Part shown: positions 13,339 to 63,579 of the stretch, piece after piece
Numbering within the stretch: the stretch's first letter is position 1
Layout of the letters: each line of letters starts with the position of its first letter
Assembly (NCBI RefSeq): GCF_020085105.1
Contig: NC_058044.1
Span: 27,718,206-27,782,205 of the forward strand
Length of the DNA: 64,000 bases
Origin: Siniperca chuatsi
Taxonomy: Eukaryota > Chordata > Actinopteri > Centrarchiformes > Sinipercidae
Direction: 5' to 3'
Notes under the pieces: model-generated
Database searches by the model: none
What the model was told of the DNA's origin: nothing
Seen by the model: only the letters and a program-made list of their open reading frames with translations
Program-made: the position numbers and the translations under genes

Positions 13339-15415
13339 TTACATCACTGCTTGCTTCTGTTGCGTCACAGCCAAAAGGTTGTTGGTTTGAATCCACCAAC
13401 TGACTGGGGCTCTTCTGTCTGCAGTTTGCATGTTCTCCCCGTGTTCACGTGGGTTTCCTCCAACCCCCAGTAAAGCACTGTGATACACAGGATTTAACTG
13501 CTCAAGTGTTGATGGGGCAGCATGACAATACAGAATATCTCCATAGTCAAGGACAGACATGAAGGTTGGCTGCACAATAGTTTTATGGCCGGAAGTAGAC
13601 AGACATCCTTTAATTCTGTACAAGAAACCTAGTTTGATTTTTTAAATTGAGTCAAATCTTGAACGACTGTCTGCTGTCAAGCCAAATTCCTAAGTAGTTG
13701 TAGGACTCAGCAAGAGTAATATGGGTGCCATTTAAAGTTAGATATGGCAGGACAGTCAGAGTCACCGGTGGAGGTGGAGAATAACATGCACTTGGTCTTT
13801 TCTGCATTTAAAACTAGTCTGTGATTAAAGAGTGGTACTTGGAAAGCATCAAAGGCAGACTGAAGACGAGTCAGGGCCTGGGCGTCGCTTGGGGTATATA
13901 AAATACTATCATCGGCAAAATAAAATGTTAATTTGAAAGTATTATTTTATTTATGTATAACGTAAACAGAATGGCCCGAGGATAGACCCCTGTGGCAACC
14001 CATTTCTGATTGTAAGATGGCTTGACTGAGTACCATCAGCAACAACAGTCTGAGTTCCCTCTGTAAGGGAAGAGTGGAACCAATTAAGCGTGGCTTCATC
14101 TAGACCTATAGACTGTAGTTTGTGGAGTAGGATTTTGTGATCAACAGAATCAAATGCTTTAGAGAGGTCAATGAAGAGGGCAGCACAAAATTGTCTATCT
14201 ATGAAGGAGACAATGTTATCATTGACTGAAACTGCAGCTGTTATTGTGCTGTGACCTGGGCGAAAACCAGGCTGCTGTGGCTGTAGTAAGTTTAGTGAGT
14301 CAATAAAGGCACATAGCTGTACATTGACCAAGGATTCTAGGATTTTTGTTAAGGGAAGTTTGGATATTGGGCGATAGTTGTTGAGATTGGAGACATCACC
14401 ACTTTTGTGTAAGGGCGTTACTGAGGCACTTTTCCACGAAGCTGGAATCATGCCTGTCAACACATATTTTGAATCAAACATTTTTAAGTGTGGACAGATT
14501 AAGGGGGCACTTAGATGAAGGAGATATAAGTCAAGATTATCTGCACCAGCATTTATGCAAGCTTTGCCCCTAACCAGAGTTTTGGAAACATCTGCACAGC
14601 TGACCAGATTAGAAGAAAATGTACACTCGGAAGAAGCTGAGGCGATGGGGACTCCCTCTGCTGGACAGATATGGTAATTGTCTACAGATGAATCAGCAGA
14701 CATTAAATAAAAGACCAGAGGAGAGAAAACGGTGATTAAAAGCTTCTACCATAGAAGATCTATCAGTAATATGACCAGATAGATGTTTGACTTGTGATGG
14801 GAGGTGTGAATGTGATGAGGTCTTCAGAGATGCTATGGTGATCCAAAATTTAGTGGAACTATCACAGGCAGAGAGCTGACTGATAATTTGATTTAGCCTT
14901 CCTAATCATGCTGGTGCAGATGTGTCTTTGGTGCCTAAAGGTTAACCAGTCCTCAGGGCTGCCACTGGATCTAGCCTTGGCCCAGGTTTTGTCTCTGCTG
15001 AACCAAGGACTGAATCTCTTTTTAATTCTATGTTGTTGTTTTTTTTTTAAAGGAGCATGTCTGTCAGCAAAAGCATTAAAAGAACGTTGACCGGTGCCAC
15101 GGCAGAATCAGCGATAGAGACGATTTTACTAATGTCAGATTCACAAATCATTTAAACAATCCTTTAATTTAAAATGCTTGTTGAATTTCTTGCCGTGATA
15201 ATCTGAGATTGAAATTTTGAAACTCTAGTATGTCTGACACAGGCGACAGGGCAGTGATCACCAACGTCAAGGGCAAAAACTCCAGAGGCAGGGTATTTGT
15301 TTGGTCTGTTAGTCAGTATATCAATTAATGTGGAGTTAAGAGGATTTTTGAAGTTTGGACTGAAAAAAGATGAAGTTGTGGGATCAAAGACAGAACAAAG
15401 GGAGGAAGGAAGCAT
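13339..15415 (-). mobile_element. Decayed CR1/L2-group LINE, minus strand
   Basis: Read on the minus strand from 15415 to 13339: an endonuclease-type fragment (GVFALDVGDHCPVACVRH), then about 250 residues of reverse transcriptase (14703-13951) with NNYRPISKLP, GFRPGHST, FIDLSKAFDSVDH and NGLPQGSILGP motifs. A degraded FADDS box (around 13920) and a C-terminal segment (VLDYGDILYCHAAPSTLEQL) follow. Frames are interrupted several times. The element sits between two relic slc43a3 exons. Confidence 0.85.
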
Positions 15416-31127: not shown

Positions 31128-34100
31128 TTATGGGACCTTTTCCATCCCACTGTTCTTGTCGTCATTCCTAACTGCTGTTTGCCCACTCTCAGTGGCGGGC
31201 ATGTGGTTGTGGTGCAGAAACAAGATTGAGTCCAAACTTTCTGGTGGAATGTTGGCTCTCTTCCTGTACGTAGCTCCCGCTCCTTCCTGCACAAAGTCCT
31301 GTGCAGCGTTACCTGCCACTGCCGGAGCAGCCAGGTAGGCCCGTGCCACTGTGGCTAACAGCGGAAACTGCACAGCCTTCGTCCTCCACCACTGCAGGGG
31401 CTCCACTCCCAGCGAAGCTCCCTTGTCGGCTCTGAAGACAGACATCTCCATGTCTATAGACTCCTCCACGGAGCTCTGCCTGGTCCTGGGTGCAGAGCAG
31501 AACAGGTCTCCCAGGAGGAACTCCATACCAGAGAGCCCGCCCTGAGAGCCTGGATCTGCCAGCTCGCTCTCATCAGCCTCCCCTGCATCGCTCTCTTCAT
31601 CTTCGTCTTCGATCTCTCTGAAGTTGATTGGGCGGGATTCTTTGAGGCGCTTGCTCCTCCGCAGAAAGTCACTCTCTGACTCTGGTGACCCAGGTGAGGG
31701 GCTTCTCTTGCTCTGGCTTTGCTTCTTACCTTGGCCTTTCCTCCTGTCCTCCTTCACAATCCTGACAGCCTCTTTCTTTAGCCAATCAAAAATGGCCGTC
31801 TGCTCCTTGAAAATAATCACAACAAAAAGATTTTATTTGTGTTCCAGAGTATCTTTTGCTTCACACATTATTATAACTATGATTGGGGAAGAGACAAGTT
31901 ACATAGAAGAATTTTTCAAGAAGATCAGATCAAGAAGGCAGCCTCAAAAGTTAATGTAATGTAGTCTTCCTGGCCAATGATGTTCAAGCACATTAGCACC
32001 AGAAATGGAAATAATAAGCAGGAAACAGAAATCTCTCAGTACATATGAATCATTAATATGTATTCCAAAACAAATTTAATATCTCAAAAGAAGCTGACAG
32101 ATATTTAGTAAAAAAAAGAAGGCAGCAAGCCTATAAAGCACTGGCTTTAATAAAATGTTCAGTATCAGTGGTATGTGCTGTTCATAGGGTGGGATATCAA
32201 ACCTCAATGTTCTGGTACTGACTGAAATATTGATTGAATATTGAATATCGAGTTTGAAAACTGTCAAGTACTGAGAGTTGGCATCAAAAATGCCTGTTCA
32301 CATTCATAGTCTAGCTTACAGTACTTATTCTTTGATCAGATAGTTCCAGATTTTAATCATGTTTTTAAAATCGTATTCGCACTAGTATCGGAATATTTCA
32401 AACAATAAGCTACCCACTAATCATGACCATTCTCTTAAAGTAAGCTACAATTGTTAGCATGTTTGGCTAACTAGTTTACTAACTACAGGTTAATTGAGTT
32501 TTCCCATTCAGGGAGCACATCAATAACTAACTACATTGGTTTGTGCAGTTACTGGTTACATTGAAAAAAAAAAAACACAAGCCTTGTTCATGATTAGCAC
32601 ATGCACTGAGTAGTACTTCCTCATTGTGTGGAGCTGGTCCTGGACGCTATCGGAGGAGTTTAGGGTAACGTTAGTGGCTCTGTCCTACTCTTTGTTGGAT
32701 CTGGGGAAGTTTACACTCCACCAACCCCAGCCTAAATTACCAGAAAATGCTAGAACAGAAAGTTTGACAGGCATAGCAACAGTAACTAAAGGGGACAGGG
32801 TTTAGCAAACAGTCAATTCCCTGCATTTTAACTTTACAACTCACCTTCTCCTCCATGAACCCCAGCCCATGGAACTGGGGGTCGAGGGAACATGCCACAC
32901 ACAGAACCCTGTTGACAACGGGGTTGTCGTAACAGCTCGCCAAGTTCCGCCTCATCATCCTCTTCACTTCCTTCAGGATGGATGAGGAATCTCCCGGCCT
33001 CGACATGAGGTGGCGGGAGAGCAGGCCGGTGAGAATGGGTTTGATGAGGGACAGACGGGGGAATGCCTCCTTGGCGAGGGTTCGACACGCCACGTCCAGA
33101 GGTTTGAGGACCAAACACAGCTCCTCTAGAACCTTCCATTCAGATCGCAAAGTGGGAACGCTAGTTGAGGATGTGTTGGAGGTGGAGTTTGCATGGCAGC
33201 TGCCAGATGAACTGGATTCTGAAGAAGTGTCTTCTTTGGACAAGCCCTCACCTTTAATCTCTTTCATCATATCATAGAAAAGGCTTTTATGTTTGATGAA
33301 CGTGCTCAGTAGAGGGTACAGCTTATTCCATGTTGGCCGGCTGTGAGCCCATGACTTCAGCTCAGCCTGTTCTTGTTTCGTCAGGGTCTGCAACAGACTC
33401 TGGGTGTGGTTCTGATAAGAGCCTTTGTTTTGAGCAGGTGGCAGGAAGAGGGTTGAGAGAATGCCCTGGAATTGGCTGAGGGTCTTGGAGATGACGGAGT
33501 GTGACATCACTTCCTCAATGCAGCCCTGCACAGCGCTAAAGAAACATGGCACAGATGGCAGTCCTTCACTAGAATGGCCGTGCTCTGTGCCATGTGGTTC
33601 CTCGGGTGACACAGAGTCGTCCCTCTCAAGAAATGTTGTTGAGTTCGGGTGAGGGACGCTTCCTGCAGCCTCTCCACCTTTCTCGCTCTTAATTGGCCCC
33701 AGCCTCATCTTGTTCCTTCCCTCCCCTCCCAGCAAGACTAGATTAGGCTGGGAGATTCCCCACTCCTGGGCCATCGCTTTCACTTGAGCCTCCACTGCTC
33801 GAAGGCTGTAGTCTTTCGCCCCACTCTCTGTCAGTCTTTGGGTTGCCAGAGCCAGGTTCTGAAAACTAAAATTACAGTCTATGTAATGTGCCCAGAGGGT
33901 GAGGTACCTCTCAGTGTTGCCCTGCCAGTTGTGGAACCAAATATCCACACTTAAAGTGACAAAATGAGGAACTTCCCTGCGATGGCTCGGAGGTCGCCCA
34001 CGTCTCCTGGTCTCAAACTCAATGGGAGCGGTGTAGTCAGATACCTCCTCGTTTTCTCCGCTTCCCATTTTCCTCCTCAGCAGCTGAGCCAAGCTCGTCT

Positions 34101-34325
34101 TGCCTTTGGTGTGGTGTTCTTTCAAAAGGTTCTCGAGTTGACAAGGTGAAGGCAGATCCTTGTAGGAGGGCAGGAGAGTGTGGATCAGCTGTTTGAAGCC
34201 TCCCCCTTCAACCAGAGCCGGGGGCTGGAGATCCATGATGAGAAAGTTGGCAATGGCATCGGTCACATGAGCAGATGATACCAGGGGGAGTGTACTGACC
34301 ATCAATGGCTGCGAGCGCTGTTGAC
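31128..34325 (-). other. hAT transposase-like exons (exons 7-8)
   Basis: Exon 7 opens with the hAT-typical AHVTDAIANFLIMDLQPPAL block and retains the first catalytic-type aspartate in LSVDIW (D887). Where DNxxNM-type second acidic motifs are usual it reads LLGGEGRNKM (about 957-966). An AT-hook-like RRRGRPPSHRR lies at 866-876. Exon 8 begins FDWLKKEAV, carries a basic then acidic insert (KRLKESRPINFREIEDEDEE) and ends with a dimerisation-type block EPLQWWRTKAVQFPLLATVA, where the usual SERVFS motif is replaced. Confidence 0.8.
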
Positions 34326-37300
34326 CTTTTGTGAAAAAGAACAAATCTCCAATCGGCAAATAAGCTTCAATAGTTTGACAACACATTTTTACAAAGCCTG
34401 TTTAAGCTGTAGATCAATTTTGAACCACTTTTGAAAGAGCTATCTGACTCACATTTTGACTCACATCTCGGGTCTTATTTTTAGCCATGCTAGCGGCGTG
34501 GCACTCTCTACAGCAGCGTTGGTCGGTCAGTTCGTTGGTTCACCACTTTGGTCCAAACTGAAATATCTCAACAACTATTGAATGGCCAATACTTCCAAAA
34601 CTAATGACACTCCCATCAGCCTCAGGTGTACTTTCTGTGTAGTGCAAATTAGTAAACGTAATCATGCTAACACACTAAAATAAGACAGGTAAACATTATA
34701 CCTGCTAAACATCAGCATTTTAGCATTGTCATTGTGAGCATGTTGCCATGATAGCATGAGCATTTAGCTCGCACTGCAGTGCCGAAGTACAGCCTCACAG
34801 CTAGCTAGCATGGCTGTAGACTCTTAAAAGAAATCCGTCTGGACAAAACACACGAGCAGTCAGACCATTAGACAAGTTGTAAACTCCAGGGTTCACTAAA
34901 CTTATTTAGAACAGAAGACGAAGATGAAAAATAAAAATGATTACCCAAACTGCACTTTGTAAGCATACATCACAGTTTACAGGCCATCTTCCTGGTTTAA
35001 CTTTATACTACTCGACATAGTTGTTTGTGTGCAGTTTTCCAGAGTAATGCAGGATTATTAGTAACATTTTGGTGCTTTTGGTGGCGCTCACTTTTAGTTT
35101 TACCTCCAAATAAAGTGGTTTATATAATTTGGCAAAACTCTTGGTTCGTTTACAACCTGTCTGACTGCTCATTTATTGGTCTGTCAAGTTATAATAAACC
35201 AGAACTTTCCTTTAACATTGTAACTTTGATACTCTGTCATTTATTGTGCAAAACAGGCAGTCGACAGTAATAGTTACCTATTGTCAGAAGACTCCGATCC
35301 TTGTTACTGTCACGTGGTCTGATGTGGTGCTTGTTGGTCAGATGGTTTTGGAGATCCACTGCTCCTCCCCCACAGGCCACATGTTCCCCACACAGCTTAC
35401 ACACCACAGTGCTCCGGTCCAGAGGCCGACCGGTTGGGTCCGGCTCAAACCCAAAAAAGTACCACGGGCTGTTCTGTGTGGCATTTGGGTTACTCAGCAG
35501 TTTCTCAGTTCCAGGCATAAAATCGTACTTTTCCAACGGATGAGAGCTAGGGGATGGGAAGGAGATCAGGGAGGAGGAGGGGAAGGCAGAGCCAGAAATC
35601 ATGCCTGAGTCACTAGCTGCATCCAGGTTTGACATTGTCGTCACATCACTGATGACAAGCATGGGACTCTGTGACTGGCTGTGGTCTGACCAAAGGGAAG
35701 AGCTGCTGGGCTCTGGGAGGGTGACCAATTGGATGTCCTGCAGGAGGCGCATAACTGTCTCCTTGTCTCCAACTTCACATTTCACACTGTCACCTGTATC
35801 TCCCCAACAAAAACAAAAACATAGGATGTTGGCCAAAAAGCAAGCTATATTTTCAGTATAACACCTTCAGAATAATAGTTCCAATTAAATTTAAGTCTAC
35901 TTTCAGTTGAAAATGAATGTGGAAGTGAAAAACTAATAGGGATCTGCTAGGCTGCGTCTGCCACGTCATTCCATGCGTCAGTGAGTGAACTCACCCATCC
36001 CGAGGCCCAGCAAGGTGGCATAATCCTTGCCGATCCAGACCCTGAGCTCGGCTCCCTCTGTGATGGGCTGGGAAACCCTGTAGTAGATGTGACGGTAAAA
36101 CTGGAAGACGACCAGGTTGTGTTCCTCCTCACTGCTGGTATATGTTACATACCTGAAACATACAGCAAACACATACAGTACGTAACTGTGACCAGCAAAG
36201 TAAGAGCCAATCTCTGTCAAACAAATGCTGTGATCGTAAATAAATAAAACTACGAGTGACTGAATGTCAGACTGCATTATGACAGAAACAAAGCAGAAGG
36301 GAGAAAGTAAGACCTGCCCACCTCATCCAGTTAGATTTGTTTTCATCAGAAGCATCGATGTAGACAAAAGCAGCCTCATCTCTGATCTGGAGATGGGAGC
36401 AATGCGTATGTCAACTATTTTTATACCCAATTCTGTTTTGGATTCCTGCTCTCAACACAAGTCAGAAATTACATCATGGATTTTAAATGTTATTGTAGCG
36501 CAAAACAGCACCATTTTTGCCATAACTTGATTTTAAACGGCCTCTTTAGGTCTACTCAAACCTGTCTACTTACAGCCCAGGTGTATCTGAGGTTGGTCGG
36601 CATCTGTCCTCTGCACACTTCTCCTACAAATGGCCCAAACATGACGCCCTGCTGAAGGTGACACTTGGCGTACACTTTCATCTCTCCCATCTGCTCCTCG
36701 CCGGAAGATCCAGGACCAGACTTCCCAGACCCAACGTCCCCGCACAGGCACAGGCAGGAAGGCAGGGACAACACCGCCCGGGAGGGGCCGCCATGGAGCC
36801 ACGGCTCTCCAGGCGGCAGCACAGCATCTGGGACATAGTTCTGGTTTGAAGCAGTCTGGAGAAACGGAACATCCTCGAAGAATTCATCGTGGTTTAAATC
36901 TAAACCTGGAGAGGCAAAAAAAAAAAAAAAAAAAACAGAAATATTTAGTCAAATATGGAATTAAGGTGAGATATTGTCATTGACTAGAGGAGGAAGCACG
37001 TTTACGGTTTTTTTTGTTTTGGGTGACAAAACAGAGATGACGTGATTAAGCAACTCAGTAAATAGAGACAAAACCTTTTGAGGATATTACTGAATTAGAA
37101 TGTGATTGTTACTCTACAACATTAGACATATTACATTATAGTAAATACACAACAATTTACACATTTATTTATAGCAAAGACAGAAGCTTTGAGTTTGTTT
37201 TGATTCGTTTTATTTTGTTCCCCCACCAAGAAAAATGTATTTTTCTTCAGCGTCTTCACGTTCGTTCGTTCTGACATTCTGTAGACATTTTTCTGAACAT

Positions 37301-38697
37301 TTCACTCAGACTGTAATTACTAAGATAATGACTCCATTGCAGCAGTGGTGCAGAATGTGTGTGCTTGAGTGAACTTCTGTTAGGGGTGCCCACTTGTCTG
37401 GTGGCAGACCTGCTGGGCCAGCTGAACCGCTCTCTGGCAAGAGCTCGCTCCGCTGCTTACGGCTCCCCAGGGACGGCGTCTGGTGACTTTGGAGGGAGCT
37501 TTCAGACCTGTTGTAAAAATTATATTTAAGTCATTTCAGCAGGTGTAATGGGATAAATTAAGATGGCAAGAGGTGAATATCGTCCTACCTGTGTGCGCTG
37601 ACAGGAATCATTTCTCTCCCCTCCAGTCCTGCGTCATACAGTTGGTGAAAGGGTGTGCTTCTGACGCAGTGATTGGTATAGATGACTGATGTGCCGGCTT
37701 CTTTACACATGCGGGCCAGCATTGAGCCCAGATAATTGACTCCTAGTGGGACGTGGCTGTACCACATTTCATCCGTTAGCTCCTTCTTAGGCTGTAAGTA
37801 AAGGGCGGTTGCGTTGGATGGGAGCTTGCTGAGGTACTTCAAGAGAGAAGTAATGGGACAGAATTCACTGCCTGGCTTCTCGAACATAGAGCATCGGTCC
37901 TTCTCAATATGAATTTTTGTCTCATCACCAAAGGATAAAGTGCAGTATCTCAGTCCCCTCTCGTCTTTTCTGATCACAAATGAATCTGGCTTTAGATTCC
38001 TGTTAGCCTGCTTCCCTCTGCGGCCGAAATGTACCTGTATATCGAACCAGACTTTGTTCAGAAGTCCCCTTGGAGTGCTGGTGTCCATCGCACGCGAGTG
38101 TCTGAGGATGCGGATATCATCAGGAGACAGTGCCTGATGGTGTGATGTTATGTCTCGACCGGACTTCCTAATTCTCTTCAGCACTCCCAAGAATACCTTG
38201 TTGGCTGAGGTGAACTCAGCATCTCTCATTAAGCACACAGGGCGGCTGACAGGAGGCTCTTTGAAGTAACGGTTAAGTCCAGCTCTCAGTGCAATGTAAC
38301 TAGCGATCCCATACAGCTCACCTTTGCTGTTTCGTACTGATCCATAAAAGTGTCTCAGTAGCCCGTTCAGCTCAGTCTTCTCCGCTGTAGTCAGGTCCAC
38401 CTGGAGCCCCTGGGACTCCAACCAGCCAATGAAGCAATTCACAGCCCATGTCGTCTGCTTCTTTGTAACCGTACTTATTTCAGTCCTGCTGTCTTCAAGT
38501 TCATCCAGTTCCAAGTCTGATACCAGTGCATGTCTACAAATGTCAGTGGTATTTACTTCACACTCTACCTCATCCTGTGACTCAGCCTCTTCTTTCAGAA
38601 TGAGCTCATCTTTAGTTGTCATCTCAGGTTCAAACAAATCCACATTTTCACGAGAACCCCTCAGGTCTGCATTCATAATGTTAGCTGCTAGCTCCAT
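31128..38697 (-). CDS. Tyrosine recombinase - PR/SET - BED - hAT fusion protein
   Basis: Eight minus-strand exons join with matching phases and GT-AG borders: 38697-37589, 37507-37410, 36905-36574, 36386-36322, 36152-35995, 35793-35278, 34325-32845 and 31805-31128. Total is 4437 nt, 1478 residues. Domains in order: Crypton/DUF3504 tyrosine-recombinase-like (about 80-400), PR/SET (about 475-587), BED zinc finger (C719, C722, H738, H743), hAT transposase-like (760-1253) and an acidic/serine-rich insert with a hAT C-terminal dimerisation-like block (to 1478). Catalytic residues of both transposon domains look lost, suggesting a domesticated nuclear DNA- or chromatin-associated protein. The start chosen is the first in-frame ATG; the frame is open upstream to about 38822. 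The PR/SET part resembles PRDM9/PRDM11. I do not recognise the whole protein; no function is claimed. An alternative is two or more transcripts sharing this locus. Confidence 0.8.
34541..34825 (+). repeat. CAACAACTATT dispersed repeat, copy 1
   Basis: CCACTTTGGTCCAAACTGAA, ATCTCAACAACTATTGAATG and AATGACACTCCCATCAGCCT are shared with 48755-49322 and, inverted, 50630-51240. It lies in the intron before the hAT exon. Contains the GCTAACA-rich tail common in fish genomes. Confidence 0.75.
35278..35793 (-). other. BED zinc-finger exon (exon 6)
   Basis: A serine/proline-rich lead (about residues 610-700) precedes WYFFGFEPDPTGRPLD and a C-x2-C...H-x4-H BED finger (CKLCGEH..LQNHLTNKH). In active hAT elements the BED finger binds the transposon ends. 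The exon ends in phase 1 and splices in frame to the hAT exon. Confidence 0.85.
35995..36905 (-). other. PR/SET domain exons (exons 3-5)
   Basis: Exon 3 ends with VMFGPFVGEVC and RYTWA; exon 4 encodes IRDEAAFVYIDASDENKSNW followed by MR; exon 5 encodes YVTYTSSEEEHNLVVFQFYR, IYYRVSQPITEGAELRVW and IGKDYATLLGLG. Block order and residues (GPxxG, NWMRYV, EEExNLVxFQ, IYYR, ELxVWxGxxYA) are those of PRDM-family PR/SET domains, closest by eye to PRDM9/7 and PRDM11. No C2H2 finger array follows, unlike most PRDM genes. Confidence 0.85.
37410..38697 (-). other. Crypton/DUF3504-like tyrosine recombinase segment (exons 1-2)
   Basis: Residues 1-75 are acidic with a LKEE SUMO-type motif. The recombinase part shows the first catalytic arginine region HFGRRGKQANRNL (R226/R227), the HxxR box NHCVR (H343, R346) and the second histidine box SAHR (H369). 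The final motif reads SESSLQSH, with His378 where the nucleophilic tyrosine of active relatives is expected. The same domain type occurs in vertebrate KIAA1958, ZMYM2-4, QRICH1 and KCTD1, which are Crypton-derived. The last box is split by the intron at 37589/37507. Confidence 0.75.
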
Positions 38698-38829: not shown

Positions 38830-39650
38830 TGTATTGAAGAGACGGGGTCAGTCGGTTTACAAAGGGGTTTTAAAAGGCTAAAGATGGCGGCTCTGACGGG
38901 CCAATCACTGCAGCATCCGCAAAACTGTCGTTAGGTACGACATATCATACCAGCGGGCCAATAGCAACATATCCCACACCAAACGATATTTTAAATAACA
39001 AAATATCCCCTTGTGTCTCCGTCAGCTCTTTATAATGGACTGCGTAAAAGACTGTTTAGGTGATACCATGGCAACAGGGACTGCCGTAAAACAGACTTCT
39101 AGCGCTTGGGTCGTATTCTCTCTGCGCATGCGTGCAAACATATTTAGGTTTTTTTGTAATTGCAGTTACATAGCTGAAATGAACACTCACTCTACGTTGT
39201 ATAATGCCCCTAAATGTGACATGAAAATGACATTACGTATGAAAGAACTTGACATAAGATAACCCCGTTTAAAGAAACACACACCGTTTTACTCACTGAC
39301 CTGCTGGCAGGTGTTACTCAAACGACGCTTGAGTGTAACCAACATTCTTGATTATATCCACTCTCTGAATGTGTCTGATACAGTCACAGTGCATGGTCGG
39401 AATTAAACGTTGCATTCAGAGACGTGACACACTAAAAACACTCACATCAGTCTATGTTACAACATTAAAACAACGTAAACCATATCACGTGGTCTGTGCT
39501 CTAAAGTGTGTTATAAATTAGCAACGAGTGTGTATACAGGCTACACAGCATCAGGGTCAGGGACTATTTTGTGTCACCTTTAACTGCTCCCCATTGCAAT
39601 GCAACTTTATAAAACCCACAATAGTGCCCCACTGCAGCTGCATTTTGTCA
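38830..39650. promoter_or_regulatory. Probable promoter region of the fusion gene
   Basis: Around 38880-38960 the sequence is GC-richer, with two CCAAT motifs on the plus strand (near 38901 and 38959) and AAGATGGCGGC, a YY1-type element. Head-to-head or internal promoter use cannot be decided from sequence. The remainder is non-coding. Confidence 0.35.
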
Positions 39651-39769: not shown

Positions 39770-40010
39770 CTTGAGCCTCAAACAAAGCTCCAGAAGTCGT
39801 GGAAGAAGTGGTCTCGAAAAAATCTGCACGATGTCGACGTCTCAGATGACTTCTTAAATTCGTGGTATTTCCACCTTTTGCAAGCACTATTTTTCGACAT
39901 AAACGACAGACGGCCTCGCCAGAGTTCAAAGGTTGTCCCTTTTCATCTGCTTTCAAGCCGAAATACAACCACACGATAGACTTGCTTCTTGGTTTACTGA
40001 TAAGATCCAT
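39770..40010 (-). CDS. Second BED zinc-finger exon, upstream of the fusion gene
   Basis: ATG at 40010 in good context (ACAAACATGG) opens 80 codons with WLYFGLKADEKGQP and a BED finger CRLCRKI..NLRSHLRRRH. The exon ends at CAAG/GTGATT in phase 1. A phase-1 acceptor (CGTATAG/CACCGG, near 38790) lies at the start of the open frame that precedes the recombinase exon, so it could be the first coding exon of the fusion gene. Alternatively it is a leftover of a separate ZBED/hAT copy. The acceptor has a weak pyrimidine tract. Confidence 0.55.
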
Positions 40011-40100: not shown

Positions 40101-40345
40101 GGCAGTTGGCAAACAGCTTTCGGGTGCATTACCGCCACCTACTGACCTGGAGTGTGGACCATCCATGGTGTGGACTAATGATCTTCTTCTTCTTCTTCTT
40201 CTTCTTCTTCTTCTTCTTCTTCTTCTTCTTCTTCTTCTTCTTCTTCTTCTTTCTTCTTCTTCTTTCCGTTTCATGGTGGGTGGCAACCGGCAACCAGCAT
40301 TAAGGTGCATTACCGCCACCTACTATGTTGGAGTGTGGACCAGAA
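40101..40345. repeat. Duplicated repeat terminus flanking (CTT)n
   Basis: GGTGCATTACCGCCACCTAC followed by GGAGTGTGGACC occurs twice (near 40122 and 40302), on both sides of a CTT run at 40183-40264. The unit is a common fish repeat end associated with TTC microsatellites. Confidence 0.75.
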
Positions 40346-42147: not shown

Positions 42148-42549
42148 GTAAGCACTAAACCCGCTGATGATTAGCCTCCAAAATTTTGTTATATCGCTGT
42201 ATTTTTCAGGACAGAAGTCGCGACAGTCTCTCTCGTTTCACACGTTCTTTCATGCTTCAATTACGAAGGTCACCCGACTTCTCTGTTTATCTAAACTTAG
42301 GTTTAGCTTAGTTTCTTGTGGTTAGTTACAACCTTAGTGACAGCAATTGCTTGGTTTCACTTACTGACGATTAGCTTATGGTTAGCCACTGCTAACAACA
42401 TTGTGGCCTCGCTGACTTGCCGTAGCAAGCTGTCTTCTTCCTGGTGGGGCAGTTGTTGCCATGGCGACCCCACTCACAAGTTATCGGAGGTAGAAACTAA
42501 CTCAACTTAAAAGTGCAGTCACACAGAAACTTAACACATACGGATAAAA

Positions 42550-44766
42550 ATGGCGTCTTGCCTGGTGCCGGACTTCCCAGCCGTCTTGGTTGCTCTCGAG
42601 CATTTAAAGGAACTGGACAAGCAGCTGAAAGAGGAGGGAATACCATTCTCACCTGACGCCAGCCTCCATCTGACAGAGATAACGACTGCTATCACTGAAC
42701 TGGAGGTGGACCGGCGTGCTGCTCATGAACATTTAGAAGTGGAAACCATAGAAAACAGCAAGCTAAGACACCAAATTAACAATATAAGAGAGAGAATGAG
42801 CCAGGAAATCATGGCTGACGTAGCAGCAGCCCGGGCATCTAATGCTGAGGAGATAGAGCAGCTGCACAAAGAACTCAACACAGTTTCTCAGCTACAAGAA
42901 GCCACTGTGAAGAGGCAGGAAGCCCTCTCCAGCCAAAATGAAGCACTGTACCCAGAGCGTGAGCAGGTGAAGGCTGAACATGAAGAGATGATTGCTGTTC
43001 TGAATGATGAAATAACCTTAAAGTATGGCCTGCAGCTGCAGCTGGATCAGACACGGGAGCAGATAGAGGAGCTGAAATCCTGCATCGCTGCTGTCGAACA
43101 GGACAAAATAACACTGCAGCAAAACATGGCACTGGAGAGAGAGGCTTTCGCTGTGAAAAAAGACAGCCTGTCCAGAGAAGTGGACCAAGCCGAGGGGAAT
43201 ATTAAGCAGCAGAAGCAAGCGATCAGGAGGAGCAGAGGAGAGCTGGACAGAGTTAACGACAAGAAACAAGAAACCCATGACCATCTGGGCGAGCTCATGA
43301 TTCACATGGCCAAGCTGGAGAGCAATATACAAAGACTGACAGCATCTCGGTGCCAGTGCGAGAAACTGCTGGAGGTGGAGAACCAGAAGCAAAAAGAATT
43401 GAGGCAACAGAGAGAAACGCTGAAGGAGGAGTTGTGTGAGTTAGGGGAAGCCTTCAGCGTTGCCGTCCAGCGTCTTAAAGAGGAAATAGCCACGGTGGAA
43501 GGTAAAATAGAGGCGGGTCGAGCAGCAAGATTGCTCTTTCAAGACTCCCTGGCTAAAATCTATGAGATATTCAAGCATCAGCGCGATGAAGAGAACGACG
43601 TGAGGGCAGAGCATTTCCACGTCTCGCAGCAGCTGGAGCGATCCAGGCTGCAGCTGGAGGAGCGCATTTCCTCCATAGTCAAACACAGCAAGGAGATCAA
43701 AGAGATGGACAAGCAGATCGGAGAACTCCTGGAAGCCGACACAATCAACAAGCGCGTGTTTGAGAGGCATCAGGAAGAGATGTGCGGTAACGTGGATACA
43801 GAGAAGAAGAACATCAGCAATTTGGAGGAGGAGAAGAGGCGGCTAAGGAGGCTCTTGGAGGAGGCGAAGAGGAATCAGGAGGAGCACGTGGCGAAAATGA
43901 CCTCTGATATCAGCAACACCATGGCGAGATACCAGGAGCTTCAGCAGAAGGAGGCCGCACTCCAGCAGCGTCAGCCCAAGAGCATGGATACTGACTTGCT
44001 GATGAGCCATGTGACCCAGTGTGAGGTGGAGTACAGACAAAAAGAGATCAAACACCATCAGGAAATAGAGCAGTGCACTGCAGAGACTGAGAGCATCGTA
44101 AGGAGCAACGAGGAGAAGCAGAGGGAGATGGAGGAGAAAGAGGAGATGCTGAAGGACGTGGAAGCAAAGTGGAACGAAGAGCGCTCCAGGCTACAGAGAC
44201 TACAGATGCTGACCTCCGAGCTGAGGAGGAAGAAGAACGATCTGGAGCTGTCCATTCAGGGGCTGAAGGAGAAAACCAGCTCTCTGCTTCAGCCCAAAGT
44301 GGAAATGAAGGCTGAGCTGGAGGAGCTGCGACAAAGTTACATGGACGTGCTCGACAAGCGGGCCGCAGAGCTGAGAGCTGTGGAGATGAGCATCTATGAC
44401 AGCAGCGTGAAACTGGAGCAGGTGAGCGTGGAAAACAGCAGGCTGCATCTCTGTATCAGACAGACGACAGAGGCCATTAGCAGAGCCAGGGAGGACAAAG
44501 ACCGATACTGGCAGGAGATTCACCAGTTCAAGCGGGACATAAAGGCCTTGTTTGAGAGTTTACAGGAAGCATGGAGAGAGGACCTATTGGTAACTCAGGA
44601 CTGTCAGAGCAGCGATGGTGTTCTGTTGGTGTCGATGAGTGACCTGATGAACCACCTGAAGACCAGGAGACAACAGTTAGGGAATGTCCGCACACTCCTA
44701 CACCAACAAATGTTAGACTTCAGCAAACAACTGGGAGATAAAACAGCTAAAGAGCAGCAGAGTTGA
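42550..44766 (+). CDS. ccdc175: Intronless coiled-coil protein, CCDC175-like
   Basis: A single uninterrupted frame of 738 codons starts at AAAAATGGCG and stops at TGA. After a short N-terminus (about 1-35) the protein is almost entirely heptad-type coiled coil rich in E, K, Q and R, without a catalytic domain, signal peptide or membrane segment. The N-terminal block ITELEVDRRAAHEHLEVETI with ENSKLR and the PEREQVKAEHEEMIAVLND stretch resemble CCDC175 as I remember it (human about 790 residues); this is a moderate-confidence guess. Absence of introns in so long an ORF is unusual for a coiled-coil gene and could mean an old retrocopy with a 5' intron. A poly(A) signal lies at 44869-44874. Confidence 0.8.
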   Translation: MASCLVPDFPAVLVALEHLKELDKQLKEEGIPFSPDASLHLTEITTAITELEVDRRAAHEHLEVETIENSKLRHQINNIRERMSQEIMADVAAARASNAEEIEQLHKELNTVSQLQEATVKRQEALSSQNEALYPEREQVKAEHEEMIAVLNDEITLKYGLQLQLDQTREQIEELKSCIAAVEQDKITLQQNMALEREAFAVKKDSLSREVDQAEGNIKQQKQAIRRSRGELDRVNDKKQETHDHLGELMIHMAKLESNIQRLTASRCQCEKLLEVENQKQKELRQQRETLKEELCELGEAFSVAVQRLKEEIATVEGKIEAGRAARLLFQDSLAKIYEIFKHQRDEENDVRAEHFHVSQQLERSRLQLEERISSIVKHSKEIKEMDKQIGELLEADTINKRVFERHQEEMCGNVDTEKKNISNLEEEKRRLRRLLEEAKRNQEEHVAKMTSDISNTMARYQELQQKEAALQQRQPKSMDTDLLMSHVTQCEVEYRQKEIKHHQEIEQCTAETESIVRSNEEKQREMEEKEEMLKDVEAKWNEERSRLQRLQMLTSELRRKKNDLELSIQGLKEKTSSLLQPKVEMKAELEELRQSYMDVLDKRAAELRAVEMSIYDSSVKLEQVSVENSRLHLCIRQTTEAISRAREDKDRYWQEIHQFKRDIKALFESLQEAWREDLLVTQDCQSSDGVLLVSMSDLMNHLKTRRQQLGNVRTLLHQQMLDFSKQLGDKTAKEQQS

Positions 44767-55200: not shown

Positions 55201-56091
55201 GCCCTCAGCTGGTCCCGCAGGAAGTACCTCATCTTAGAGGAGATCCTCACCTACCGACCACATATCCTGTGTCTGCAGGAAGTCGACCATTACTATGACA
55301 CCTTCCAGCCAGTTCTGGCAGGCCTGGGTTACAGCAGCAACTTTTGCCCTAAACCCTGGTCGCCATGCCTGGATGTGGAGGGCAACAACGGCCCCGACGG
55401 CTGCGCGCTGTTCTTCGATCAGTCGCGATACGAGTTCCTGGATAGCATGAGCATACGGCTGTCTGCCATGAGGATTCCAACCAATCAGGTGGGTAGAATC
55501 TGCTTAAAGCCACACTTGGACACATAGAAACCTCCTCATAAGCACCTTTAACACGCCGCCCTCTTGCCACAGGTTGCTGTGGTGACGATGCTACGTTGTC
55601 GGCGCACGGGAAGATGCGTGTGTGTGGCCGTGACCCACCTGAAGGCTCGTTCTGGCTGGGAGTGGCTCCGCAGCGCCCAGGGCTCCGACCTCCTGCGACA
55701 CCTCCAGAATCTGGTCCAGAAACACGCCGGCGGGCCCACGGGTGCCCCTAGCTCTGACATTCCACTGGTCATATGTGGCGATTTCAACGCAGTCCCAACT
55801 GAGGAGGTCTACCGGCGTTTCAGTGGGTCGCCTCTCGGTTTGGACTCGGCCTATAAGAAACTCAGTCAAGACGGTTTGACTGAGCCGGAGTACACGACAT
55901 GGAAGATTCGGCCTACAGGGGAATGCTGTACCACTCTGGACTACATTTGGTACAGTCAGGACACACTGAGAGTGGACGCAGTTTTGGACATGCCCACGGA
56001 GGAACAGATTGGGCCAAACAGGCTTCCGTCCTTTAGCTATCCATCTGACCACCTTTCTCTGGTTTGTGACTTTAGCTTTAAGGAGGAGTGA
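52240..56091 (+). CDS. noct: Nocturnin, EEP-family NADP(H) 2'-phosphatase
   Basis: Five coding exons in phase: 52240-52252 (METM), 53263-53405, 53504-53663, 55157-55488 and 55573-56091; 388 residues. The endonuclease/exonuclease/phosphatase fold shows all signature boxes: MMQWNILAQ (N101), LCLQEVDHY (E147), VTHLKAR (H238), CGDFNAVP (D286, N288) and SDHLSL (D375, H376). KPWSPCLDVE, NNGPDGCALFF and TEEQIGPNRLPSF are nocturnin-specific blocks. The start joins METM to VCPMGGGATRLYSAL, matching the shorter human form that begins within VCSMG; no long mitochondrial leader exon was found here. Known role: circadian enzyme that dephosphorylates NADP(H) to NAD(H), formerly called a deadenylase. The third exon has a tandem acceptor. 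Convergent with elf2. Confidence 0.95.
54432..54665 (-). mobile_element. L2/Maui-like LINE tail, copy 3 (inverted)
   Basis: Reverse complement of the tail at 3293-3470: GGCAAGGAAAAACTCCCTTT, AGCAGGTCTAGACCATACTC and ATTTATATAGCGCCAAATC are recognisable. It lies in a noct intron. Confidence 0.8.

Positions 56092-59513: not shown

Positions 59514-63579
<4,066 letters not shown>

What the first reader, a model, noticed from the sequence alone, without database searches (positions are those of the whole stretch)
31128..38697. Gene fusing a tyrosine recombinase, a PR/SET domain, a BED finger and a hAT transposase
Eight minus-strand exons keep frame across all seven introns (phases 2,1,0,2,1,1,0) with GT-AG borders, giving 1478 codons with no stop. 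They combine material of a Crypton tyrosine-recombinase element, a PRDM-type PR/SET domain and a BED-hAT transposase. I recall domesticated genes with one of these modules, but not with all three. Chance phase agreement over seven junctions is unlikely, yet the transcript itself is not observed. A link to PRDM11 long forms cannot be excluded from memory.
Basis: partly seen in the sequence, partly recalled or inferred. Interest (0 to 1): 0.95.

Follow-up and report, generated by a model that had tools for sequence, protein, structure and literature searches.

The report
Transposon-derived exon joined to PR–hAT gene
In spiny-rayed fishes a tamed mobile element, a Crypton, sits inside an old gene that already joined a PR/SET domain to a hAT transposase, and gene models join all three into one protein, though whether cells really make it is not yet shown.

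Summary
The eight-exon, 1478-codon reading is correct and is letter-for-letter the database protein LOC122873905 isoform X1 of mandarin fish, Siniperca chuatsi. Two layers must be separated. (1) A PR–BED–hAT gene, a PRDM7/9/11-group lineage distinct from this genome's prdm9-like and prdm11 loci, is old: sharks, coelacanth, frogs, lizards and eels have it. (2) A Crypton tyrosine-recombinase gene lies between that gene's upstream BED exon (40010–39770) and its PR exons. Among named hits this Crypton lineage is seen only in percomorphs. Across 13 species its core diverges as slowly as the hAT module (0.182 vs 0.185), but the catalytic tyrosine is lost in 23 of 23. The Crypton has promoter-like motifs, its own stop and candidate poly(A) signals; five other fishes annotate it as a separate protein. 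The three-module protein is therefore most likely an alternative splice form alongside BED–PR–BED–hAT and free Crypton proteins. Phase agreement is weak evidence at the one junction that matters. No fusion transcript was seen. Precedent: KCTD1 isoform b. New variant of a known kind.

The parts
39770..40010 (-). alternative first exon of the PR-hAT gene: BED zinc finger, 80 codons plus one base, donor phase 1 (not in the finding)
   Evidence: frame and donor; zf-BED 3.6e-11; matching N-terminus in 76 relatives
38881..38962 (-). promoter-like stretch before the Crypton exon: YY1-type GCCGCCATCTT (38881-38891) and two ATTGGCCCG (inverted CCAAT) at 38897-38905 and 38954-38962
   Evidence: 1 match vs 0.04 expected; 2 vs 0.16; naming of the motifs is recalled
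37589..38697 (-). Crypton exon 1: tyrosine-recombinase core, 369 codons from ATG
   Evidence: DUF3504 at residues 200-331; Crypton fragments elsewhere in the genome at 31-57% identity
37410..37507 (-). Crypton exon 2 as spliced into the fusion; catalytic Tyr position holds His
37306..37507 (-). the same exon 2 read through its donor: end of a free-standing Crypton protein (~435 aa) with stop at 37308-37306
   Evidence: similar tail in P0175, P0177, P0179, P0187
37164..37214 (-). two AATAAA: candidate poly(A) signals for a free-standing Crypton transcript
36574..36905 (-). PR exon A; acceptor phase 1, fits both the BED and the Crypton first exons
36322..36386 (-). PR exon B; exon ends after NWM(R), as in the prdm9-like and prdm11 loci of this genome
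35995..36152 (-). PR exon C; PRDM9 catalytic Tyr position is Ile (VWIG)
35278..35793 (-). linker and internal BED finger exon
32845..34325 (-). hAT transposase-derived exon
   Evidence: no other close copy in the genome
31128..31805 (-). hAT C-terminal dimerisation exon, stop TAA
   Evidence: PF05699 1.5e-7; Hermes, E 0.014

Best explanation
The locus is one transcription unit with alternative 5' exons. The base is an ancient gene in which a PRDM9-type PR domain was joined to a BED-hAT transposase and enzyme activity was probably lost. In an ancestor of percomorph fishes a Crypton element landed between the BED first exon and the PR exons, in the same orientation. Its recombinase was kept as a host protein after loss of the catalytic tyrosine. 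Its own promoter drives transcripts that either end at the Crypton stop (free ~435-aa protein) or use a donor inside Crypton exon 2 to join the phase-1 PR acceptor, giving the 1478-aa Crypton-PR-BED-hAT protein. Most likely function (inferred): a DNA-binding, dimerising chromatin regulator. The hAT C-terminus dimerises, the PR domain works as a protein-interaction surface rather than a methyltransferase, and the choice of first exon swaps a BED finger for a Crypton DNA-binding fold, changing target sites. Shown: exon structure, module identity, loss of key catalytic residues, protein-level constraint, distribution among our hits. Inferred: promoter, splicing in vivo, DNA binding, regulation.
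For: Exact match to a database isoform. 21 of 167 pooled PR+hAT proteins carry a Crypton match, 19 of this lineage from 19 named species. One annotated gene in Anarrhichthys (LOC116392948) has both a Crypton isoform X1 and a BED isoform X3. Models P0005 (Seriola dumerili) and P0026 (Clinocottus) run BED exon, part of the Crypton, PR, hAT. Crypton core differs by 0.182 on average over 78 species pairs against 0.185 for hAT, distances correlate at r = 0.87, and 9 of 12 species show no gap in the core against Siniperca: vertical descent under constraint. At 0.1 neutral substitutions per site 5 stops would be expected in 369 codons. The other 49 Crypton matches in this genome are mostly short fragments, many with stops; one (C6:32239129, 33% identical) is long and open. 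Catalytic Tyr absent in 23 of 23, present in 5 of 7 other Crypton-type proteins compared. PR Tyr replaced in 153 of 153 parsed, 15 not parsed. Promoter-like motifs. Precedent KCTD1b.
Against: No RNA read or cDNA could be aligned. Of the 8 raw contigs ('lgn') with a long PR-hAT frame listed, 7 start with the BED exon and 1 lacks its N-terminus; none has a Crypton. Their frames of 986-1196 codons fit on contigs of 3.4-4.9 kb, so they are probably spliced RNA (inference). One raw contig (P0187, 1629 bases) shows the free Crypton form. Five species annotate the Crypton as a separate gene. The stretch just before the junction (residues 353-403) is poorly conserved (0.379), and the free-form tail behind the donor is no less conserved (0.289 vs 0.376), so selection may act on the free protein alone. 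Gene models keep frame by construction, and the PR acceptor also receives other mobile-element-like N-termini in models (Monopterus P0032, Thunnus P0004), which suggests that predictors attach upstream frames readily.
Confidence: 0.66

Rival explanations
1. Two separate genes share the locus: a nested domesticated Crypton gene and the BED-PR-BED-hAT gene. The three-module protein is only a rare read-through splice form or a gene-model artefact without function.
For: Separate models in Seriola lalandi, Toxotes, Cebidichthys, Centropristis and Parambassis, the last four on contigs of the same length as that of a PR-hAT protein; own stop and AATAAA; tail not less conserved than the stretch before it; middling donor; no Crypton among 8 raw-contig PR-hAT frames.
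Against: The same junction (PAG or SAG followed by LD[LS]N) in 15 of the 19 fused models of this lineage (P0058 and P0226 differ there, P0084 in the same call, P0027), several of them labelled as alternative isoforms; models running through all modules in two species.
Confidence: 0.28
2. The Crypton part is a recent, still mobile insertion caught in the model by chance.
For: Crypton relatives exist elsewhere in the genome.
Against: Other copies found in this genome are at most 57% identical; ortholog distances track the hAT module (r = 0.87); catalytic Tyr lost in 23 of 23.
Confidence: 0.02
3. It is a long form of PRDM11 or PRDM9.
For: The PR domain belongs to the PRDM7/9/11 group; the eel member scores 164 bits to PRDM9 and 139 to PRDM11 and aligns over their zinc knuckle; exon border after NWMR shared.
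Against: Separate prdm11-like (C4) and prdm9-like (C20) loci in this genome; the PR-hAT proteins form one clade from sharks' relatives to teleosts (UFBoot 97). The deeper node joining this clade to the others has only 58, so its exact place in the group is open.
Confidence: 0.04

Closest known systems
KCTD1 isoform b (Crypton DUF3504 exon upstream of BTB/POZ; Kojima & Jurka 2011, PMC3212892, section read)
   Same: A Crypton inserted upstream gave an alternative N-terminal exon of a host regulator; catalytic residues lost; a shorter isoform without it persists.
   Different: Host gene is PR-BED-hAT, itself transposase-derived; insertion seen only in percomorphs among our named hits; the Crypton also has its own stop and is annotated as a free gene in some fishes; two exons rather than one.
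Crypton in an ATF7IP intron of birds (PMC3212892, section read)
   Same: Conserved Crypton frame inside a host intron; predicted fusion splicing without mRNA proof.
   Different: There the frame is broken in chicken and turkey and may keep catalysis in some birds; here the frame is kept in many species and the Tyr is lost.
ZBED genes (Hayward et al. 2013, PMC3606216, passages seen)
   Same: BED finger plus hAT transposase with dimerisation region.
   Different: A PR domain is added, and the catalytic Glu is not kept, whereas the paper reports the DDE triad conserved across domesticated ZBED genes.
PRDM9 / PRDM11
   Same: PR/SET domain; CxxC...C..H knuckle sequence in eel, tarpon, frog, sawfish and sawshark members; shared exon border after NWMR.
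   Different: No C2H2 array; PRDM9 Y357 position is Ile/Val/Met; followed by BED-hAT.
Host-transposase fusion transcription factors (transposase capture; recalled, main paper not held)
   Same: Transposase module joined to host domains by splicing.
   Different: Two unrelated transposon classes plus a PR domain in one predicted protein.

Membership tests
Crypton-derived DUF3504 proteins | DUF3504 / Crypton YR homology | tested here: met
   PF12012 E 7.5e-12, 46 bits against a 29.7-bit cut-off
Crypton-derived DUF3504 proteins | catalytic site not preserved | tested here: met
   Tyr lost in 23 of 23; but H kept in 31 of 32 and second R in 29 of 32, unlike the known genes, which all lost Tyr and the second Arg
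Active Crypton element | R-H-R-Y tetrad intact | tested here: not met
PRDM family | PR domain | tested here: met
   PF21549 1.5e-35; PRDM9 structures 86 bits
PRDM family | C2H2 zinc-finger array (most members) | tested here: not met
   no C2H2 family among the matches
PRDM9 | three catalytic tyrosines of the SET domain | tested here: not met
   Y357 position is Ile/Val/Met in 153 of 153 parsed, 15 of 168 not parsed; the other two tyrosines not scored; role of the residues from passages of PMC5519329
PRDM11 | falls in the PRDM11 clade | tested here: not met
   the prdm11-like locus is at C4:32716069
ZBED / hAT domesticated | BED finger and hAT dimerisation region | tested here: met
   internal BED below cut-off in the window protein itself, BED first exon clear
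ZBED / hAT domesticated | DDE catalytic triad conserved | tested here: not met
   the SER motif of Hermes aligns with AAQ here (its catalytic Glu recalled); family motifs seen, 9 of 174 not parsed; second Asp judged by eye only
Expressed three-module fusion gene | transcript spanning all modules | not testable with these tools
   no RNA data; database models only
Gene under purifying selection | dN/dS below 1 | not testable with these tools
   no DNA of other fishes held; protein-level constraint only

The most novel reading that the evidence does not exclude
The PR exon of this catalytically dead PR-hAT gene is a recurrent capture site: one phase-1 acceptor behind a first intron has taken N-termini from a BED finger, a Crypton in percomorphs, a second, distant Crypton (twice in tandem in Labrus bergylta) in wrasses, and CENPB/Tigger-like and other sequences elsewhere, so that a fixed dimerising PR-hAT core is re-aimed by changing mobile-element DNA-binding modules. 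Of these, the Crypton-PR-hAT form is made and selected in percomorphs.
Probability: 0.3. Interest if true: 0.8.

Novelty: new variant of a known kind. Interest (0 to 1): 0.62.

Why it matters
It would be a protein built from two unrelated classes of mobile element (tyrosine recombinase and DDE transposase) around a PR/SET domain, each with a key catalytic residue lost. It gives a datable case of Crypton capture, otherwise known from very old events, with living fishes whose models lack it, have it free, or have it fused, so the step from nested gene to fusion could be tested directly. It also points to a PR-hAT gene found from sharks to lizards that databases call only ZBED1-like or uncharacterized.

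Tried and rejected
PRDM11 or PRDM9 long form: rejected. Recent mobile Crypton: rejected. Intron gain inside the tamed Crypton: considered and dropped, because six other Crypton frames from raw contigs (P0192, P0201, P0203, P0208, P0210, P0212) end at the same residue as the window's exon 1, suggesting the intron belongs to the element, although seven fossil matches in this genome run through that point without a gap. Homology of the free-form tail with other Cryptons' C-termini: suspected, not supported by the alignment. dN/dS: not possible without other fish DNA. Paper searches for this combination: no listed title or abstract start describes a PR-hAT or Crypton-PR-hAT gene. Only open-licence papers are held, lists were capped, and passages or sections were seen for only five papers (PMC3212892, PMC3606216, PMC5519329, PMC9859435, PMC10027918). 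Cosby et al. 2021 is not held, so its tables could not be checked.
Full report
The observation. The protein is identical over 1478 of 1478 residues to a database entry, uncharacterized protein LOC122873905 isoform X1 of Siniperca chuatsi, a centrarchiform percomorph. The window therefore most likely comes from mandarin fish; its assembly has 719 Mb. Pfam finds DUF3504, PR and hAT-dimerisation domains; the internal BED finger falls below cut-off in this protein but is clear in eel, frog, sawfish, coelacanth and sturgeon relatives.

An upstream exon at 40010-39770 encodes a BED finger and ends in the same phase as Crypton exon 2. A matching N-terminus is found in 76 relatives, among them P0007 of Seriola aureovittata. 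Also, Crypton exon 2 is open past its donor to a stop at 37308-37306, followed by AATAAA at 37214 and 37169. That gives a free protein of about 435 residues, matching separately annotated proteins in other fishes (P0175, P0177, P0179 and, with a changed tail, P0184; P0188 ends earlier).

The old layer: PR-BED-hAT. A profile search (65 proteins; only the 8000 candidates sharing most words were scored) finds PR, BED and hAT domains together in sharks, rays, coelacanth, lungfish, sturgeon, frogs, salamander, caecilian, lizards, snakes, turtles and eels, mostly called ZBED1-like; order was checked for seven proteins. Eel, tarpon, frog, sawfish and sawshark members show a PRDM-type knuckle sequence (Pfam support weak); the eel PR region scores 164 bits to PRDM9 and 139 to PRDM11. 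This genome has separate prdm11-like (C4) and prdm9-like (C20) loci. A small PR tree puts the PR-hAT proteins in one clade (UFBoot 97) apart from PRDM11 (98) (176 columns, outgroups and one member partial; the deeper node has only 58). The hAT module has no close second copy in the genome; other matches reach at most 44 bits. At the PRDM9 Y357 position none of 153 parsed proteins has Tyr (15 of 168 unparsed), and the Hermes Glu is replaced (the Hermes catalytic residue is recalled).

The young layer: the Crypton. In 229 pooled proteins (one search listed 120 of 127), 167 match both PR and hAT modules and 21 of these also match the Crypton module. Nineteen are of this lineage, from 19 named species: Siniperca, Morone, Seriola, Chaetodon, Anarrhichthys, Epinephelus, Scatophagus, Sebastes, Plectropomus, Sander, Clinocottus, Lycodopsis, Cottoperca, Scortum, Notolabrus, Labrus, Pempheris, Dissostichus and Tautogolabrus; six are partial (P0018, P0020, P0026, P0027, P0053, P0226). 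All are percomorphs as far as I recall; Siniperca, Labrus mixtus, Dissostichus and Clinocottus were looked up. Two more (P0054, P0057) carry a different Crypton at 35-38% identity. Free forms occur in Toxotes, Cebidichthys, Centropristis, Seriola lalandi and Parambassis; the last belongs to Ovalentaria and Seriola to Carangaria, so the insertion should predate the split of those clades from Eupercaria. Cryptons outside this lineage reach at most 61% identity.

Constraint. In 13 fused species the Crypton core (residues 51-352) differs by 0.182 on average, hAT by 0.185, PR by 0.143; core and hAT distances correlate at 0.87 (78 pairs). The N-terminal 50 and last 51 Crypton residues are looser (0.397, 0.379). 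The catalytic tyrosine is gone in 23 of 23 sequences that cover it, while five of seven other Crypton-type proteins have it; the wrasse second Crypton has it in P0054 and not in the two copies of P0057. This is the pattern of a tamed protein, but dN/dS could not be measured.

Is the fusion real? For: the same junction in 15 of the 19 fused models of this lineage (the wrasses P0058 and P0226, the icefish relative P0084 and P0027 differ), isoform labels, and models that run BED, Crypton, PR and hAT together. Against: no RNA alignment; of 8 raw contigs with long PR-hAT frames 7 start with BED, 1 is truncated, none has a Crypton; one raw contig shows the free form (P0187); the free tail is not less conserved than the stretch before it (0.289 vs 0.376); the donor is middling and frame agreement there is cheap; predictors also attach other upstream frames to the same acceptor. 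That NCBI's pipeline makes alternative isoforms mainly from transcript evidence is recalled, not checked. I put the fusion being made at a useful level at about 0.6 and functional at about 0.45; these are judgements.

Mechanism. Three modules with lost catalytic residues point to a DNA-binding, dimerising regulator whose first exon sets its targets; this is inference. Kojima and Jurka propose DNA or protein binding for DUF3504 (section read), and describe KCTD1b and the bird ATF7IP intron Crypton, the closest precedents (sections read). ZBED genes keep the DDE triad according to passages of Hayward et al.; this family does not keep the Glu.

Novelty. Each kind of event is known; the combination, and the PR-hAT family itself, were not seen in the paper searches named under Tried and rejected. 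I file it as a new variant of a known kind.

Noticed in passing
P0054 and P0057 (Notolabrus, Labrus bergylta models): Wrasse models carry a second Crypton, only 35-38% similar, joined to the same PR exon, in two tandem copies in Labrus bergylta; the Notolabrus copy keeps the catalytic Tyr.
   Followed up: partly
P0032, P0004, P0015, P0066, P0102, P0104, P0109: Other N-termini on the same PR exon in gene models: CENPB/Tigger-like in Monopterus, another mobile-element-like one in Thunnus (my reading), a short one in Xiphias, a different BED-like finger in pipefishes and Halichoeres.
   Followed up: partly
P0123 and P0169 (moray and conger models): Calmodulin-like EF hands in front of the PR domain, probably a gene-model fusion.
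   Followed up: no
P0049 (Scophthalmus maximus model): Its N-terminus holds a 13-residue match to the Crypton exon (E 0.03), hinting at decay in turbot.
   Followed up: no
window 42541-44766 (+): 741-residue open frame that looks like coiled coil, without Pfam match, divergent from the BED exon.
   Followed up: no
window 55552-56091 (+) and 61223-61717 (-): An Exo_endo_phos exon and a weak ETS-domain match (24.5 bits, below cut-off) further along.
   Followed up: no
window 13951-14745 (-): Reverse-transcriptase fragment of a retroelement (PF00078 8.1e-21).
   Followed up: no
window 40120-40340: GAA-type simple repeat flanked by two copies of AGTAGGTGGCGGTAATGCACC just upstream of the BED exon.
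   Followed up: no
G000:C6:32239129-32240112 (L010): Another Crypton-like frame, 553 codons open, 33% identical; possibly a second tamed Crypton gene.
   Followed up: no
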